Source of the DNA: Verrucomicrobiia bacterium
GTDB taxonomy: Bacteria; Verrucomicrobiota; Verrucomicrobiia; Limisphaerales; DSYF01
Assembly: GCA_035765895.1 (NCBI GenBank)
Contig: DASTWL010000087.1
Location: 1-49,006, forward strand
Direction: 5' to 3'
DNA length: 49,006 bases
A program made the translations under genes and the position numbers. The notes under the pieces were generated by a model. That model was not told the DNA's origin and made no database searches. It was given only the letters and a program-made list of their open reading frames with translations. Below are positions 280-49,006 of the stretch, one piece after another. Numbering within the stretch: position 1 is the stretch's first letter; every line of letters starts with the position of its first letter.

Positions 280-780
280 TTAATGATGCTTAGAAAGAGC
301 TACAGTAACTTCGTTTGTATTCGAGTATTCGCCATCCGCAGAATACCAAACTTTCACCTTAAGGTCCGCTATCCCATTCGCTCTTCTTCTATTTAAAAAT
401 CCCCAGTTCGGCATTCGAAACGAGACTTTGCTCCAAGATTTTCCCACCACTGCAACCTGTCCGTTTGGTGGGGAGACTGTCATGTTAATCACAACGGGAA
501 CCGCGACAATATCAGGGCCAATTGGCTCGGCGATTAGCGCTAAGGGCCTGTCATAAATTATGATTTCCCGGCTCAAATTCGATCGAAAGGCCACGTCTAG
601 ATTCAGATCGATCAAGCCTCTTTGTTCATCGTAAACACCTGCAGCTCGAGAACAGACTAATTCAATCGATGGTTGGCTTTCTACCGAACCTCTTGGGACA
701 TTCCTGTTTCCAGTTGAGCAAGCACATCCCCCAACCAAACAGGCAGCAAAAACAGTAAAAGTGTTGAGTGCGCGGTTCAT
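280..780 (-). CDS. Small lipoprotein, function unknown, downstream of RHS gene
   Basis: This 166-residue protein begins with a short basic stretch and a hydrophobic segment ending in a lipobox (LVGGC, Cys at about residue 19). It should therefore be exported and lipid-anchored. The rest has no recognised motif; it looks beta-rich. It starts 8 bp after the stop of the RHS-type gene on the same strand, so the two are probably co-transcribed. Small genes behind RHS tips are often immunity genes, but an exported lipoprotein is only one of several options and no toxin has been identified. A second lipoprotein beside an RHS remnant occurs at 14133-14606. Confidence 0.6.
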   Translation of the reverse strand: MNRALNTFTVFAACLVGGCACSTGNRNVPRGSVESQPSIELVCSRAAGVYDEQRGLIDLNLDVAFRSNLSREIIIYDRPLALIAEPIGPDIVAVPVVINMTVSPPNGQVAVVGKSWSKVSFRMPNWGFLNRRRANGIADLKVKVWYSADGEYSNTNEVTVALSKHH

Positions 781-788
781 AGCCTATT

Positions 789-2546
789 CTAGGGGGTTTT
801 CTTTAGTTGGTTCGGGAGTGTTCCACTTATTGTTATATCCAGTTGGTTCGACGTTTTGACAACTGGGCATCCCGGTTTACACTTATCGACGATTTCTACC
901 TTAATACTCATACTGTAATTTATTCTCCAGCCGTTCCACTGTGGCGATGGTGATGGAATTCCAGGAAAATCCGTAGCACGATCATAACTATCGCCGCTTG
1001 GTGTTGACTTGCATCTGTCATCTCCACCGCCGTTTTTGGGGTAATTTGCAGTATCAATATGCCACCGGCCATCTAACGGAACTCCTTGGCTCGTTGATGG
1101 GTATGGAATAAAGTCTCCGTTTGGACCAGATAGCGTTAGATGTCCAGCCATCCACTGAATGAGCTTGCAGCACTTGGCAGAATCTGGCTTTTTCATATCG
1201 TATGTCACAGCAATATGAAACTCGAAGTAGTTTCCAGCACTGTTAGCTCCGTCCTGTGCGACCCATCCGACTGGAATAATTGCTAGGGATAGAGGCTCAC
1301 ACGCACAGGTTCCAAGTTGGTCAATCCGCGTAATGGGGCAATTGCCAACAAATTCATTTAAATTCATCCCGCCTTGTTCTTCGATGGGATCCCTGTTTGG
1401 CCACCTGCCGGTGCTGGGGTTGTAGTAGCGATAGCCGTAGTAGAGCAGGTCGGATTCATCATCCTGATACTTGGTGGAGAACCGGAAGGGATTGGCCTTG
1501 GCCATGGGGCCAGTAGCCCGCAGCACTTCACCGAAGGGGCCATACTCGTATTGCGCACTCACGATTCCATCGCTCGCCTTCACCAATGCCACCACGTTCC
1601 CATTTCCGTCATAGGCGGCAAAGTGCGTCGAACCGTTTGCAGCATCGTTCATCCATAAAAGCCCCCCCACGCCTCCCGCACCTTGCATTGTCCCGCTCAA
1701 GTCCTCTCCCCACGCAAACGAGGCCAGCAGCGAGGATTGTGGATCAAGGGTGGCCAGCAGATTCCAGCCATCATAGACAAAGCGATTGGTGTATTCGCCC
1801 ACGTAGCCCGTGCCGTCGTTGGTCGAGACAATCTTCTGTATCCGCCGCCCTTGCACGTCGTAGGCAAAATCCAGCCGGAACTTGGAGGCTGTCGGCGCCG
1901 CCGCGTCGCTCTCCATTGAAACCAGCCGGTTTTCCGCATCCCAGGTGTAAGTCCAGCGCCCGTCCTGGGTCAGATTGCCATCCGCATCGTGACTGAACAC
2001 CTCGGGTGTTTGTGGCACGAACACGTTCCCGGTCACGTTGCTGCCACCCGAGGAAACAGTCACTGCTTCCCAGACTGGCGCACTGGTATTTGCCACCCCG
2101 AGTTCCTTCCGGAAATACTCGCCCCGGCGATAGGGCGTCTGGCTATTGACCGTCACTGAATTGGTCACGAGCGCCACGCCCATTACATCCACGACCCCGG
2201 CCACAGTCCGGTTGGTGTATTGATTGAGCAGGGTCACGGTGTAGTTGTTCGTTTGCAGATTCTGGCCGTTTTGGTCGCCACCCGTTCTAGTCTGCTTCCG
2301 GTTCCCGATGTCGTCAAAGCTGTATTCAAACTGCTGCCCCGCCACCGGTGTGCCGTCGCTCCAGTATTTCTTGCCGGAGGTCACCTGCCCCAGGCTGTCA
2401 TACTCGTAGAGCCAGTAGGAGCCGTCCGCTTCCGTCCCGCGCTCGCGTTGATTGAGCGCATCGAGCTGATGGGCCGCACTGGCCACCACCGCTACGCCAA
2501 CGGGGGCTTCGACGTCGTTCCGGCGGTTCAAGGAGTTAACGGGCAT
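789..2546 (-). CDS. RHS-repeat protein, 5'-truncated, with variable C-terminal tip
   Basis: The 585-residue product carries YD/RHS repeat motifs (YEYDSLGQV, YDADGNL-type HDADGNL, WDAENRL, YDVQGRR, YEYGPFGEV) and the hallmark end of an RHS core, YYGYRYYNPSTGRWPNRDP, at about residues 370-390. RHS cores form beta-cocoon shells around a C-terminal toxin or variable domain. Here the tip after the core (about residues 412-585) is Cys-rich, has no motif I recognise, and is the presumed effector part. Intact verrucomicrobial RHS proteins usually exceed 1000 residues and carry a signal peptide; this one starts abruptly without a signal. It is most likely a 3' fragment left by recombination, although it stays open to its stop. 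Confidence 0.7.
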   Translation of the reverse strand: MPVNSLNRRNDVEAPVGVAVVASAAHQLDALNQRERGTEADGSYWLYEYDSLGQVTSGKKYWSDGTPVAGQQFEYSFDDIGNRKQTRTGGDQNGQNLQTNNYTVTLLNQYTNRTVAGVVDVMGVALVTNSVTVNSQTPYRRGEYFRKELGVANTSAPVWEAVTVSSGGSNVTGNVFVPQTPEVFSHDADGNLTQDGRWTYTWDAENRLVSMESDAAAPTASKFRLDFAYDVQGRRIQKIVSTNDGTGYVGEYTNRFVYDGWNLLATLDPQSSLLASFAWGEDLSGTMQGAGGVGGLLWMNDAANGSTHFAAYDGNGNVVALVKASDGIVSAQYEYGPFGEVLRATGPMAKANPFRFSTKYQDDESDLLYYGYRYYNPSTGRWPNRDPIEEQGGMNLNEFVGNCPITRIDQLGTCACEPLSLAIIPVGWVAQDGANSAGNYFEFHIAVTYDMKKPDSAKCCKLIQWMAGHLTLSGPNGDFIPYPSTSQGVPLDGRWHIDTANYPKNGGGDDRCKSTPSGDSYDRATDFPGIPSPSPQWNGWRINYSMSIKVEIVDKCKPGCPVVKTSNQLDITISGTLPNQLKKTP

Positions 2547-2588
2547 TTCCGTCCGGACGCAACCCGAAGTTGCGAGGGTGCGGTGGAC

Positions 2589-2612
2589 TCGTGCTCGCCA
2601 ATCAGATGTTCA
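2589..2612. other. Inverted repeat between RHS fragment and glycosyltransferase gene
   Basis: CCAATC and GATTGG arms flank an 11-base centre. Further on, near 2661-2680, GTGAA and TTCAC arms flank TAACAT. The divergent gap 2547-2735 holds nothing else that I can identify. Either inverted repeat could be an operator for the downstream gene, but this is weak. Confidence 0.25.
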
Positions 2613-2735
2613 CAGATTGGTGGATGTGCCGGCTTGGAGCCGCTGCGGCTGCGCGTGCGTAATGTGAATAACATTTCACCCGTCCGACACCGGACTGTAA
2701 CCCGGCCGGGTCAGGTTGACGGCGGAAGGCCAGCC

Positions 2736-4742
2736 ATGAAACGCATTCTCATCCTGACCGCGGGGTTTGGCGACGGCCACAATGCCGCGGCCCGCAACCT
2801 GCGTGAAGCCCTCGAACTCACGGCCGATGACGTGAAGGTCGAAGTGCTCGACCTCTTCGAGTCGTCCTACGGGGCGTTGAACGCCCTCGCCAAGCGCGCC
2901 TATCTCGGCATTGTGCAATACGCTCCGACCGTCTGGGCCGGCGTGTTTCAAGTGTTCGACAATCCCACCCTGTTCCGCCAGCAGGTCAATGGCATGGGCC
3001 GGCTGCGCGAACGACTCGCCGCCGTGCTCCACGACACGGAGCCCGATTGCGTGGTCTCGACGTATCCGGTTTACGCGCATCTCATCGAGGACATTTACAA
3101 GGACCACGCGGAACGTCCGTTCCGTTTCATCACGGTCGTGACGGATTCCATCTCGGTGTGTTCGGCGTGGTATCGCGCCCACAGCGATCTGTTCATTGTC
3201 GCCAACGAGCCCACGGCCCGGGTCGTCGTTGCCGGCGGGATCGAGCCGGCGCGTGTCCTGCCGCTTGGGTTTCCCGTCAGTCCGCAGTTCGCGCTGGACC
3301 GGCCGGCGGCGCCGGTGCCGCCCGGTAAAGGGGAGCGCCGCAAAGTGCTTTACCTCATCAACACGGGGAAAAAGAAGTGCGGGCGCGTGGTGGATGAATT
3401 GTTGGAGCTGGAGCATCTCGACCTGACCATCACCGTGGGGCGCGATGCCGCCCTGAAGGCCAGACTGACCGAGCGCACCCGCGCGCACGGCGACCGCGTG
3501 AAGGTGATCGGGTGGACCAACCAGATGCCGCGCCTGCTTATGACGCATCATCTGCTCATCGGCAAGGCCGGCGGCGCGATCGTGCAGGAGGCGCTCGCCG
3601 CCCGGTGTCCGATGATCGTGAACCAAGTCATCCCCGGCCAGGAGGAGGGCAACGCCACGCTGATCGAATCCCTGGGCGTCGGCATGATTGCAGTCAAGCG
3701 CAAGGCGGTGGTGGCGTGCGTGGCGGAGGCATTTGCAAAGCAGGGCGGGCTTTGGCAGGAATGGCGGAACAAACTCCAACGCGTCAGCCGGCCGGATGCG
3801 GCGCTGCGTATTGCCGAACTCGTCCTGAATGAGTGCGAGCGGGGATCGGACGCGCCGCGGAAGATCAAATTGTTTGAGACGGCGAAGCCGCCGGGAGTTC
3901 CGCCCGCGCCCGCGCCGGCCATTGTGGGCGGCGGCGCGGCGGGCGCGTTGCTCTGCGACTTTCACATTCACACGAACTATTCCGACGGCAAGCTCGCCCT
4001 GCCCGAAGTGATCGATTTCTACGGCAAACGTGGTTTCGATTGCATCTGCATCACGGACCACATCGCCGATCCGCGCCGGTTGATTGGCAAATTCAGCGAG
4101 CTGACCAACCTGACGCTCGCGTGGAACCAGTTGGACGAGTATTTCGACGTCATTGAGCGCGAGTGGCGCCGGGCCTGGCGGAAATATGACCTGCTCGTGA
4201 TGGCGGGGCTGGAGTTCAACAAGGAAGGCTGGACGCGGAAAACGTCCGGTCATCTGTTGGGCATCGATTTGAAGGCGCCGATTGATCCGGCCTTGGACTT
4301 CGTGGAGATCATTGCGCAGACGCACAGTCAGGGCGGCCTGTCCGTCGCGGCGCACCCGCACGTGATGAAAAGCGAGTGGGGCAAGAACACGCTCTACCTG
4401 TGGGAAAACCAGGAAGTCTTCGCACCCATCATCGACGCGTGGGAAATCGCCAATCGGAACAACATTTTCACGCCCATCGGACTCAAGCGGCTGGCGTTCA
4501 TCGCCAACAGCGATTTCCACAAGCCCAAGCACATTTACTCCTGGAAAACCGTGCTGCATTGCGAGAAGGATCCGGAAGCCATCAAGCAGTGCGTCCGCAC
4601 CAACGAGCACATCGCCATCACGCTGTATCGCGATGGTTTGAGCGGCGCCGATCTGCGGCGCCCGGCGGTTGAAGCGGTTGGCCATTCGGCGGCCGAAGGG
4701 CTGGTGAACTTCCCGCTGACCGCAGCGCAGGTGGCGCGCTGA
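2736..4742 (+). CDS. Glycosyltransferase family 28 (MGDG-synthase-like) fused to a C-terminal PHP metal-dependent phosphoesterase
   Basis: The 668-residue protein has two parts. Residues 1 to about 385 match the MGDG-synthase/MurG fold: an N-terminal TAGFGDGHNAAARNL loop and a C-terminal sugar-nucleotide site with GKAGGAIVQEALAARCP. Such enzymes move a sugar from UDP-sugar to diacylglycerol or another lipid at the membrane. Residues about 405-640 form a PHP domain with all usual metal motifs: HIHTNYSDG (His410, His412), CITDH, AGLEF, AHPH and NSDFH. PHP domains hydrolyse phosphate esters or nucleotides. The reading frame is open further upstream, but the ATG with GGCGGAAGG in front of it begins the conserved domain. 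A fusion of the two families is unusual. The real substrate is unknown. Confidence 0.85.
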   Translation: MKRILILTAGFGDGHNAAARNLREALELTADDVKVEVLDLFESSYGALNALAKRAYLGIVQYAPTVWAGVFQVFDNPTLFRQQVNGMGRLRERLAAVLHDTEPDCVVSTYPVYAHLIEDIYKDHAERPFRFITVVTDSISVCSAWYRAHSDLFIVANEPTARVVVAGGIEPARVLPLGFPVSPQFALDRPAAPVPPGKGERRKVLYLINTGKKKCGRVVDELLELEHLDLTITVGRDAALKARLTERTRAHGDRVKVIGWTNQMPRLLMTHHLLIGKAGGAIVQEALAARCPMIVNQVIPGQEEGNATLIESLGVGMIAVKRKAVVACVAEAFAKQGGLWQEWRNKLQRVSRPDAALRIAELVLNECERGSDAPRKIKLFETAKPPGVPPAPAPAIVGGGAAGALLCDFHIHTNYSDGKLALPEVIDFYGKRGFDCICITDHIADPRRLIGKFSELTNLTLAWNQLDEYFDVIEREWRRAWRKYDLLVMAGLEFNKEGWTRKTSGHLLGIDLKAPIDPALDFVEIIAQTHSQGGLSVAAHPHVMKSEWGKNTLYLWENQEVFAPIIDAWEIANRNNIFTPIGLKRLAFIANSDFHKPKHIYSWKTVLHCEKDPEAIKQCVRTNEHIAITLYRDGLSGADLRRPAVEAVGHSAAEGLVNFPLTAAQVAR

Positions 4743-44673: not shown

Positions 44674-44918
44674 GCGGACCGCGGCTGTCCTCAGCCGCAG
44701 CACTCCCGAATGCCAGTGCACGTCCCGCAAAATTTGGACGGTCTTTCTGTCGGCGACCCGCTGCGGCTGGGGACAGCCGCGCTCCGGCACCTGCATGGGA
44801 GCGCCGGTCGCCAGACCGGCTTTCGAGGTTCAAATTCCAGGGCGCGCCTGGTTTGTCCCTTCATCCGGCAACCCGGCCGTTCGCTCCGCCTAAGCCGACG
44901 CGGACGTCGGCGCTCCTG
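44674..44918. repeat. Dispersed mosaic repeat, long copy R1
   Basis: This stretch shares blocks with 46911-47040 and 47118-47265: GCGGACCGCGGCTGTC, CAGCCGCAGCACT, CGGTCTTTCT.TCGGCGAC, GCTGCGGCTGGGGACAGCCG, GAGCGCCGGTC.CCAGAC.GGC and GCCGACG.GGACGTCGGCGCTCC. Several blocks are inverted repeats (CCGACG...CGTCGG, GGCTGTC...GACAGCC). It fills the gap between two membrane-protein genes. Confidence 0.75.
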
Positions 44919-47117: not shown

Positions 47118-47265
47118 CCGGCGGACCGCGGCTGTCCCAGCCGCAGCACTTCCGAATGCCGGCGCACGTCCCGGAAAATCTTGCCGGTCTTTCTATCGGC
47201 GACGCGCTGCGGCTGGGGACAGCCGTGCTCCGGCCCGGGAGCGCCGGTCACCAGACTGGCATTCC
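47118..47265. repeat. Dispersed mosaic repeat, copy R3 (first half of R1)
   Basis: GCGGACCGCGGCTGTCCCAG, CCGCAGCACTTCCGAATGCC, GCTGCGGCTGGGGACAGCCG and GGGAGCGCCGGTCACCAGAC match the left and middle parts of 44674-44918 closely. Confidence 0.7.
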
Positions 47266-47286: not shown

Positions 47287-47559
47287 AAACGACACCGGAG
47301 ACGGTCAGAATCGCTTCGGAGACTTTCTGAAGCGCTCCGGAAACTGGCGGAAGGCGTCCGCAATATTTCTGAGAGGCTTTGCAACCTTTCCGAAAGGCTC
47401 CGCAATATTTCCAGGCGGCTTTGCAAGGTTTCCAAAAGGCTTCGCAATATTTCCGACGCGCTTGGCAACCTTTCCGATTGACCTGGAAAACTTGCGGAAA
47501 GGCTTCGCCATATTTCCGGTTGGCTCCGCAAGGTTGCAAAGAGGTTCCGCAAACCTGCC
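47287..47559. repeat. Degenerate 21-bp tandem repeat, about 13 units
   Basis: Contiguous 21-base units such as GAAAGGCTCCGCAATATTTC and AAAAGGCTTCGCAATATTTC follow each other, unit starts at 47371, 47392, 47413, 47434, 47455 and onward. They alternate between CAATATTTCC and CAACCTTTCC or CAAGGTTTCC, giving a 42-bp higher order. As 21 is a multiple of three, several frames stay open and encode heptads. There are no spacers, so this is no CRISPR array. Confidence 0.8.
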
Positions 47560-47752
47560 GGGCGACAAGGCAAAACAGCGCCCGGCGGACGCAATCAGTG
47601 GGCCGAAAATATTTTTTCAGCGCCCCCGGTTTGTCGCCCATGAGTTACAAATCGCGTGACTAGCGCGAGCGGCCGTTGGGTGGAGACGTGTCAAAGCGGG
47701 ACAAGGTTGCCACGGCGGCGCCTAGAAATTGACAGCCCCTGGGAATTTGCCG

Positions 47753-47782
47753 TTGGCAGGGGGTGCCCCCATTGGCTATAAA
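47753..47782 (+). promoter_or_regulatory. Sigma-70-type promoter of cas9 with GC palindrome in the spacer
   Basis: TTGGCA (47753-47758) and TATAAA (47777-47782) are 18 bp apart, 34 bp before the cas9 ATG. Between them lies a perfect GGGGGTGCCCCC inverted repeat (47759-47770), a possible operator. An AAGGAA ribosome site is at 47805-47810, 6 bp from the ATG. Confidence 0.55.
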
Positions 47783-47816
47783 GCCGGCCATTCCAGCAAA
47801 GGACAAGGAACGGGAC

Positions 47817-49006
47817 ATGGACTACCAACTACACTCCACGGGCGGGGAACCGACCATTTGGGCATTTGACTTGGGCAAGGCATCAATCGGCGAGGCCGTG
47901 CGGCAAGGGAACCGGTTTCTTCACAAGGCCTCATTGCTTATCCCCGCTGAGTTTGCTGAAACCAAGACTGCCGCCAACCGACGACGAATGTGGCGGACCC
48001 GTCAGGCACACAAAGCACGCGAAGCCTGGCTTGATGAAGTGATGCGCAAGGCTGGTATTGAGGTTTTGCAAGGCCGACGTGTGACGTGGAATGAAAAGGA
48101 AAAGAAATGGAATGTAACGCCCGGTGACCCACGGCTGGAGCGCGAGTTTGCCGCGCCGGGTGATGACACCTGCTATACCAGTTGTCTGCTCCGCATCAAA
48201 TTGCTTCGCGGGGAAAAATTGGAGCCGTGGCAAATCTACAAGGCGCTCCACTCGGCGATTCAGCGGCGGGGATATGATTCAGATATTCCATGGAAGACGC
48301 GGGAACAACGCCGCAACGAGAAACCGGAAGATGAAGAAGGCGCAACGCTTACCCGAATGCAGGAGTTTGGAAAGCAACTCGCTGCAATGGCTGGCAGCAG
48401 AAAAGAGTATCACTGGCAATGCTACTTTGACGCTTGGCGAATGGGCCTGTGGAATCCCGCGCAGCCGGAAGAATTAAAAATGCGGCAGGACTGCCATGCA
48501 CAGTCAACGCGCGGTCAGATTGTCCCCCGTAAACTCGTCGAAGACGAAGTGCGCGCGTTAGTTGATGCGGCTGCCAAGCAATTTCCAAAGCTGGAAGGCA
48601 AGGCTGATTATCTGTTGTTTGGCCCGCCGCTCAAACCCTACGCGTCATTTGACGCGAAGCTCCGCAAGCAATTTGGTCTGCGCGAGGGAGGTGCAAACGA
48701 CTGGCAAGGTGTCGTCGGTCAGAAAATTCCACGCTTTGACAACCGCATCATTGGCAAGTGCGTGCTCATCCCACGCCTGAACGTCTGCAAGATTCGGAAG
48801 GATGGCAATGGTGACCTGCACCCGAAATCACGCATTGCTGCCGAAGTCGTCTTTTTAATGAAACTCAAAAACATGCGGCTCAAAGCGGGCAGCGCTGTTC
48901 GGGGATTGAAGGCGGAAGAAATCCGCCAGATTTTTGAAGATCCAAAGCGGACCAAACTCGGACTAACCGCAACTCAGTGGAAAAAATGGTGCGGCAAGTT
49001 TGGCGG
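47817..49006 (+). CDS. cas9: Cas9 RNA-guided endonuclease, N-terminal part, cut by window end
   Basis: The open frame runs 396 codons from the ATG to the window edge without a stop. It begins with a RuvC-I strand holding the catalytic Asp18 (IWAFDLGKASIGEAV). An Arg-rich bridge helix follows directly (NRRRMWRTRQAHKAREAW, about 54-71). At about 144-153 LHSAIQRRGY matches the conserved HIAKRRGF-type segment of Cas9. The helical REC region continues, with a QKIPRFDNRIIGKC stretch like the type II-C F/YQ...GKC motif. There is no PLMP domain and the REC region is long, so it is Cas9 and not IscB. HNH, RuvC-II/III and PAM-binding parts lie outside. Subtype II-C is the best guess. GC is lower than in neighbouring housekeeping genes. 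Confidence 0.88.
   Translation, partial: MDYQLHSTGGEPTIWAFDLGKASIGEAVRQGNRFLHKASLLIPAEFAETKTAANRRRMWRTRQAHKAREAWLDEVMRKAGIEVLQGRRVTWNEKEKKWNVTPGDPRLEREFAAPGDDTCYTSCLLRIKLLRGEKLEPWQIYKALHSAIQRRGYDSDIPWKTREQRRNEKPEDEEGATLTRMQEFGKQLAAMAGSRKEYHWQCYFDAWRMGLWNPAQPEELKMRQDCHAQSTRGQIVPRKLVEDEVRALVDAAAKQFPKLEGKADYLLFGPPLKPYASFDAKLRKQFGLREGGANDWQGVVGQKIPRFDNRIIGKCVLIPRLNVCKIRKDGNGDLHPKSRIAAEVVFLMKLKNMRLKAGSAVRGLKAEEIRQIFEDPKRTKLGLTATQWKKWCGKFG

What the first reader, a model, noticed from the sequence alone, without database searches (positions are those of the whole stretch)
47817..49006. A divergent Cas9 begins at the window edge: entry to a type II CRISPR-Cas locus
The sequence shows RuvC-I with Asp18, an immediately following Arg-rich bridge helix and the RRGY segment, so it is Cas9. 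The stretch between bridge helix and RRGY has an extra charged hairpin-like piece (VTWNEKEKKWNVT) and the region after RRGY is unusually acidic. This may mark an uncommon branch of verrucomicrobial II-C Cas9. The tracrRNA, cas1/cas2 and the array must lie beyond 49006 or be absent; none is seen within the window.
Basis: partly seen in the sequence, partly recalled or inferred. Interest (0 to 1): 0.85.

Follow-up and report, generated by a model that had tools for sequence, protein, structure and literature searches.

The report
Contig-cut Cas9 of the Cas9d family
The contig ends inside a genuine Cas9 gene that belongs to a recently curated, uncommon Cas9 family (Cas9d), whose CRISPR array lies at the end of another contig of the same genome; it is a new but otherwise ordinary member of a known bacterial immune system.

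Summary
In detail: 47817-49006 (+) is the first 396 residues of a Cas9, open to the contig end, with RuvC-I Asp18 and an Arg-rich bridge helix. NCBI's curated model CRISPR_Cas9d matches at E 9e-150 (501 bits, cut-off 375). The II-C reading is not supported: a Cas9 tree puts the protein in a clade of Cas9d-model relatives, apart from Ilyobacter-type II-C and Listeria Cas9 (AU p 0.0003 against grouping with II-C). Relatives show the missing parts: RuvC-II, HNH, RuvC-III, cas1, cas2, then on the opposite strand an ~80-nt tracrRNA with a strongly covarying hairpin, and an array of 36-nt repeats with 30-nt spacers. In the window's own genome the rest of cas9, cas1 and the tracrRNA are absent from the assembly, but the array was found at the end of contig C23, its repeat 34/36 identical to the nearest relative's. 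The locus most likely fell into an assembly gap of about 3.4 kb or more. The subtype has a caveat: these loci lack cas4, and near relatives lack the HNH zinc ribbon, both cited for published type II-D, so they could be a separate lineage. Ordinary CRISPR immunity is the best reading.

The parts
47817..49006 (+). 5' part of cas9 (Cas9d family), residues 1-396, cut by the contig end
   Evidence: open frame; NF049971.1 CRISPR_Cas9d E 9.1e-150; 80% identical to L023, 75% to L024
47853..47903 (+). RuvC-I segment TIWAFDLGKASIGEAVR; catalytic Asp18 at 47868-47870
   Evidence: direct reading; D invariant in A1, A2, A3
47973..48041 (+). Arg-rich bridge helix (ANRRRMWRTRQAHKAREAW...)
   Evidence: direct reading; R50, R53, T54, R55, A57, H58, R61, E62 (L023 numbering) invariant in A3
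48081..48119 (+). charged insert VTWNEKEKKWNVT; varies within the clade
   Evidence: alignment with relatives
48264..48275 (+). RRGY motif of the REC lobe
   Evidence: direct reading; QRRGY in most relatives
47753..47782 (+). possible promoter TTGGCA-N18-TATAAA; CTATAA is also seen 5' of cas9 in L025 and L036
   Evidence: direct reading and upstream alignment; the stricter consensus scan found none; inference only
47805..47810 (+). AAGGAA ribosome-binding site 6 nt before the ATG
   Evidence: direct reading

Best explanation
The window ends in the first third of a Cas9 gene of the family NCBI calls Cas9d, in a verrucomicrobial genome. The complete locus, by analogy with near relatives, is cas9-cas1-cas2 facing a convergent tracrRNA and CRISPR array. 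Cas1-Cas2 would add 30-nt spacers between 36-nt repeats. Each repeat ends in a -10-like TAGAAT, so crRNA precursors may start inside the array. The ~80-nt tracrRNA pairs with the repeat through its anti-repeat and carries one long terminator-like hairpin with a conserved CTGCCTAGCAC-type loop. RNase III would trim the duplex, and the loaded Cas9 would cut DNA matching the spacer with HNH and RuvC. Shown here: the Cas9 fragment and its family; an array in the same genome; the full operon and tracrRNA in relatives. Inferred: physical linkage of C87 and C23, intactness of the missing part, and all biochemistry.
For: NCBIfam Cas9d match at E 9e-150; full-length relatives in the order score 1253-1309 bits. 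Relatives carry RuvC-I D, RuvC-II E, HNH H and RuvC-III HHALDA plus HNH_4 and RuvC_III Pfam domains. cas1, cas2 and an array follow cas9 in nine family loci. Own-genome array: repeats at a 66-nt period in the last 280 bases of C23, repeat 34/36 identical to L023's and 33/36 to L024's. The own repeat pairs with the L023 tracrRNA at -50.2 kcal/mol, as well as L023's own repeat does (-50.0). tracrRNA hairpin: 13 of 17 pairs with both-side changes, 94% of cells paired, 0 of 500 shuffles as high. cas9 and cas1 trees each put the family in one supported clade.
Against: The C-terminal two thirds, cas1 and the tracrRNA are not in the assembly, so an intact gene is not shown. Linkage of C87 to C23 rests on repeat similarity, not on a joined sequence. 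Four spacers have no exact match in IMG/VR, so no target is known.
Confidence: 0.88

Rival explanations
1. It is a divergent type II-C Cas9, with the same mechanism.
For: The operon is cas9-cas1-cas2 without cas4, as in II-C; Cas1 matches the type II NMENI model over cut-off; the nearest PDB sequences by HNH/RuvC are type II Cas9s of 1082-1092 residues; repeats end in a -10-like hexamer, as known for Neisseria II-C.
Against: NCBI's Cas9d model outscores the generic Cas9 model 1309.5 to 220 on L023, while Ilyobacter II-C gives 124 to 822; the Cas9 tree separates them and the AU test rejects the grouping; the Cas1 tree also separates them.
Confidence: 0.15
2. The cas9 is a broken or orphan remnant with no working system.
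For: Only a third of the gene is in the assembly; no cas1 or tracrRNA found in the genome.
Against: The frame is open with 75-80% identity to intact relatives; the gene stops exactly at the contig end, and the array's contig also stops inside the array, the pattern of one assembly gap. The L023, L024 and L025 contigs also end inside their arrays.
Confidence: 0.08
3. An IscB-like or HEARO transposon nuclease rather than a CRISPR effector.
For: RuvC-I and bridge helix are shared by IscB.
Against: About 300 residues of recognition lobe before the break; relatives are 1036-1068 aa with cas1, cas2, array and tracrRNA; the fragment does not match the IscB model and L023 matches only Cas9 models.
Confidence: 0.01

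Closest known systems
NCBIfam NF049971.1 CRISPR_Cas9d (type II CRISPR RNA-guided endonuclease Cas9d)
   Same: The window fragment and its full-length relatives score over the curated cut-off.
   Different: Nothing found; the window is one more member.
Published type II-D Cas9d (MG34-1, MG102-2; PMC9755519, PMC11706934) and subtype II-D of PMC12669027
   Same: Cas9 on a branch separate from II-A/II-C in the tree made here; size near the upper end of the 600-1050 aa range reported; tracrRNA and array adjacent.
   Different: No cas4 at any of the family loci, and none in the window's genome or in 7 of 8 Cas9d-model genomes tested; the near relatives have no CxxC zinc ribbon in HNH, though L045 and L051/L080 do; predicted tracrRNA about 80 nt with one hairpin, against a 158-nt sgRNA for MG34-1 (PMC11706934).
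Type II-C Cas9 (Ilyobacter polytropus, Neisseria type)
   Same: cas9-cas1-cas2-array order, 36-nt repeats with 30-nt spacers and a terminal -10-like hexamer.
   Different: Different Cas9 and Cas1 clades.

Membership tests
Cas9 (type II effector) | RuvC-I Asp plus Arg-rich bridge helix | tested here: met
   D18 and helix in the window; invariant in relatives
Cas9 (type II effector) | HNH, RuvC-II and RuvC-III in the same protein | tested here: inconclusive
   beyond the contig end in the window; present in full-length relatives
Cas9 (type II effector) | CRISPR array and tracrRNA | tested here: inconclusive
   array found in the same genome on C23; tracrRNA only in relatives, not in this assembly
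NCBIfam Cas9d NF049971.1 | score over curated cut-off of 375 bits | tested here: met
   501.2 bits from the N-terminal third alone
Subtype II-D (PMC12669027) | adaptation module with cas1, cas2 and cas4 | tested here: not met
   relatives have cas1 and cas2 only; PF01930 absent from G000 and from 7 of 8 Cas9d-model genomes, and in G073 it lies on another contig
Subtype II-D (PMC12669027) | Cas1 in the II-D branch of the Cas1 tree | not testable with these tools
   no published II-D Cas1 at hand; family Cas1s form one clade apart from II-C Cas1s
Subtype II-D (PMC9755519, PMC12669027) | Cas9 groups with published Cas9d proteins in a deep branch | tested here: inconclusive
   separate from II-C and Listeria Cas9, but no published II-D sequence or IscB root could be included
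Cas9d as described in PMC9755519 | zinc-ribbon motifs in HNH and recognition domain | tested here: not met
   L023-L025 and L006 lack CxxC in HNH; only CYTSC in REC; L045 and L051 have the HNH ribbon
Type II-C | Cas9 groups with II-C Cas9s | tested here: not met
   AU p 0.000317 against the grouping
IscB | match to NF040563 over 175 bits | tested here: not met
   no match reported for the window fragment or L023

The most novel reading that the evidence does not exclude
The verrucomicrobial Cas9d-model clade is its own type II lineage, distinct from both II-C and published II-D: its own Cas9 and Cas1 clades, no cas4, and a minimal ~80-nt tracrRNA whose only hairpin doubles as its terminator.
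Probability: 0.25. Interest if true: 0.5.

Novelty: new member of a known kind. Interest (0 to 1): 0.3.

Why it matters
It corrects the subtype from II-C to the Cas9d family and links the fragment to its likely array. The relatives give a complete, testable guide RNA for Cas9s of about 1040 residues with an unusually short predicted tracrRNA, and they raise the question whether NCBI's Cas9d family and the published subtype II-D are the same thing.

Tried and rejected
AlphaFold models of the window fragment (mean pLDDT 44.6) and of L023 Cas9 (37.5) were too poor, from five close sequences, and were not searched against structures. The window fragment finds no Pfam or PDB match by itself. No overlap of the contig end with another contig was found. 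The tracrRNA model finds only an array repeat in the own genome (weak, E 0.4). Four spacers gave no exact match in IMG/VR. IscB sequences for a rooted tree were sought and none turned up. The window was scanned for a repeat or anti-repeat: none.

Full report
What is there. The frame 47817-49006 (+) starts with ATG behind AAGGAA and is open to the last base of the window. The window is the entire contig C87 of a 4.64-Mb, 96-contig genome that is 96% complete, so the gene is cut by the assembly, not by the scan. The 396 residues carry RuvC-I with Asp18, an Arg-rich bridge helix and RRGY. NCBIfam NF049971.1 CRISPR_Cas9d matches at E 9.1e-150 and 501 bits (cut-off 375); the generic Cas9 model matches at E 7.5e-17, below its cut-off for this fragment.

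Relatives. Four loci in named genome records encode it at 66-80% identity: L023 and L024 in groundwater Verrucomicrobia MAGs, L025 and L026 in two others. A fifth is in genome G025, contig C17. The full proteins have about 1036-1050 aa, with RuvC-II, HNH and RuvC-III present. cas1 and cas2 follow and an array lies behind them. In a phylum sample of 388 genomes only six, the window's own included, exceed the Cas9d cut-off, so the family is uncommon there; in the order-level set it is four of 40, again counting the window's own.

Guide RNA. Between cas2 and the array, on the strand opposite to cas9, relatives carry an anti-repeat, the invariant linker CTTAACT, and one long hairpin followed in most by a T-run. 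The hairpin is conserved by compensation: 13 of 17 pairs have changes on both sides, 94% of cells pair, no shuffle of 500 reaches this, and sliding the partner destroys it. A model built from seven of them finds the tracrRNA in two further family loci not used to build it, L078 (E 0.001) and L079 (E 0.003), and not in II-C reference loci. A TTGACC-N16-TATGAT promoter stands between last repeat and anti-repeat in L036 (direct reading). The repeat ends in TAGAAT or TACAAT; in Neisseria II-C repeats such an end acts as a -10 box (established knowledge, not tested here).

The own genome. The Cas9d model, the Cas1 family and the tracrRNA model find no further part; the only second Cas9d-model hit is a short HNH match (model positions 529-614) in a 221-residue frame on C47, of a kind found in nearly all relatives. 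But a pattern from the relatives' repeat finds four perfect copies at a 66-nt period at the end of contig C23, and a fifth is cut by the contig end. The repeat GTTTTGACTTCTCCCCCCGGAGAGGCGGCTTAGAAT is 34/36 identical to L023's and 33/36 to L024's, and pairs with L023's tracrRNA as well as L023's own repeat does. The distance from the break point to the first repeat is 3.4 kb in L024 and 4.2 kb in L023. One gap of about that size between C87 and C23 would explain both broken ends; this join is an inference.

Which subtype. In a tree of 46 Cas9s the Cas9d-model proteins form one clade with 100% SH-aLRT support that includes the window fragment, on the other side of a 99% branch from Ilyobacter-type II-C and Listeria Cas9. 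Grouping them with II-C is rejected (AU p 0.000317). Their Cas1s are also one clade (96/98). Published II-D, however, is described with a shared cas1-cas2-cas4 module and one Cas1 branch (PMC12669027), and the first Cas9d paper stresses zinc ribbons (PMC9755519). The family loci have no cas4, and the near relatives have no HNH zinc ribbon, while L045 and L051/L080 do. No published II-D sequence could be placed in the tree. So membership in NCBI's Cas9d family is shown; membership in subtype II-D as published is open.

Mechanism. From homology: spacer acquisition by Cas1-Cas2, tracrRNA-crRNA pairing, RNase III trimming, RNA-guided double-strand cleavage by HNH and RuvC. The anatomy for this is shown in relatives; in the window only the first third of the effector is shown.

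Verdict. A real Cas9, correctly recognised, wrongly subtyped, in a known family; interest moderate to low.

Noticed in passing
L045 1-8775 (IMGVR_UViG_3300037465_000360): A Cas9d-family gene (530-3811) missing about the last 65 residues lies between an RRM RNA-binding protein gene and Mu-like head genes (Phage_Mu_F, Phage_tail_S). It looks like a host cas9 cut by a transposable prophage rather than a phage-carried Cas9.
   Followed up: partly
window 47295-47565; L023 7181-7476; L024 6036-6359: Tandem arrays of 21/42-nt period lie about 0.25-2 kb upstream of cas9 in the three closest genomes but not in L036 or L077; the units are barely alike, and the window's array is unique in its genome.
   Followed up: partly
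window 44692-44788 and 47138-47234; also L035 7377-7486: Dispersed repeat of about 100 nt or more, 90% identical between the two window copies, with related stretches on C23.
   Followed up: no
L038 and L039 (genomes G037, G004): A second verrucomicrobial Cas9 group just under the Cas9d cut-off (360 and 321 bits on the whole protein), with HNH zinc ribbon and a different repeat and tracrRNA.
   Followed up: partly
L036 6407-7676: The 5'-most repeat of the array is altered at its first base (ATTTTGAC instead of GTTTTGAC), which suggests that the tracrRNA-proximal end is the young end.
   Followed up: no
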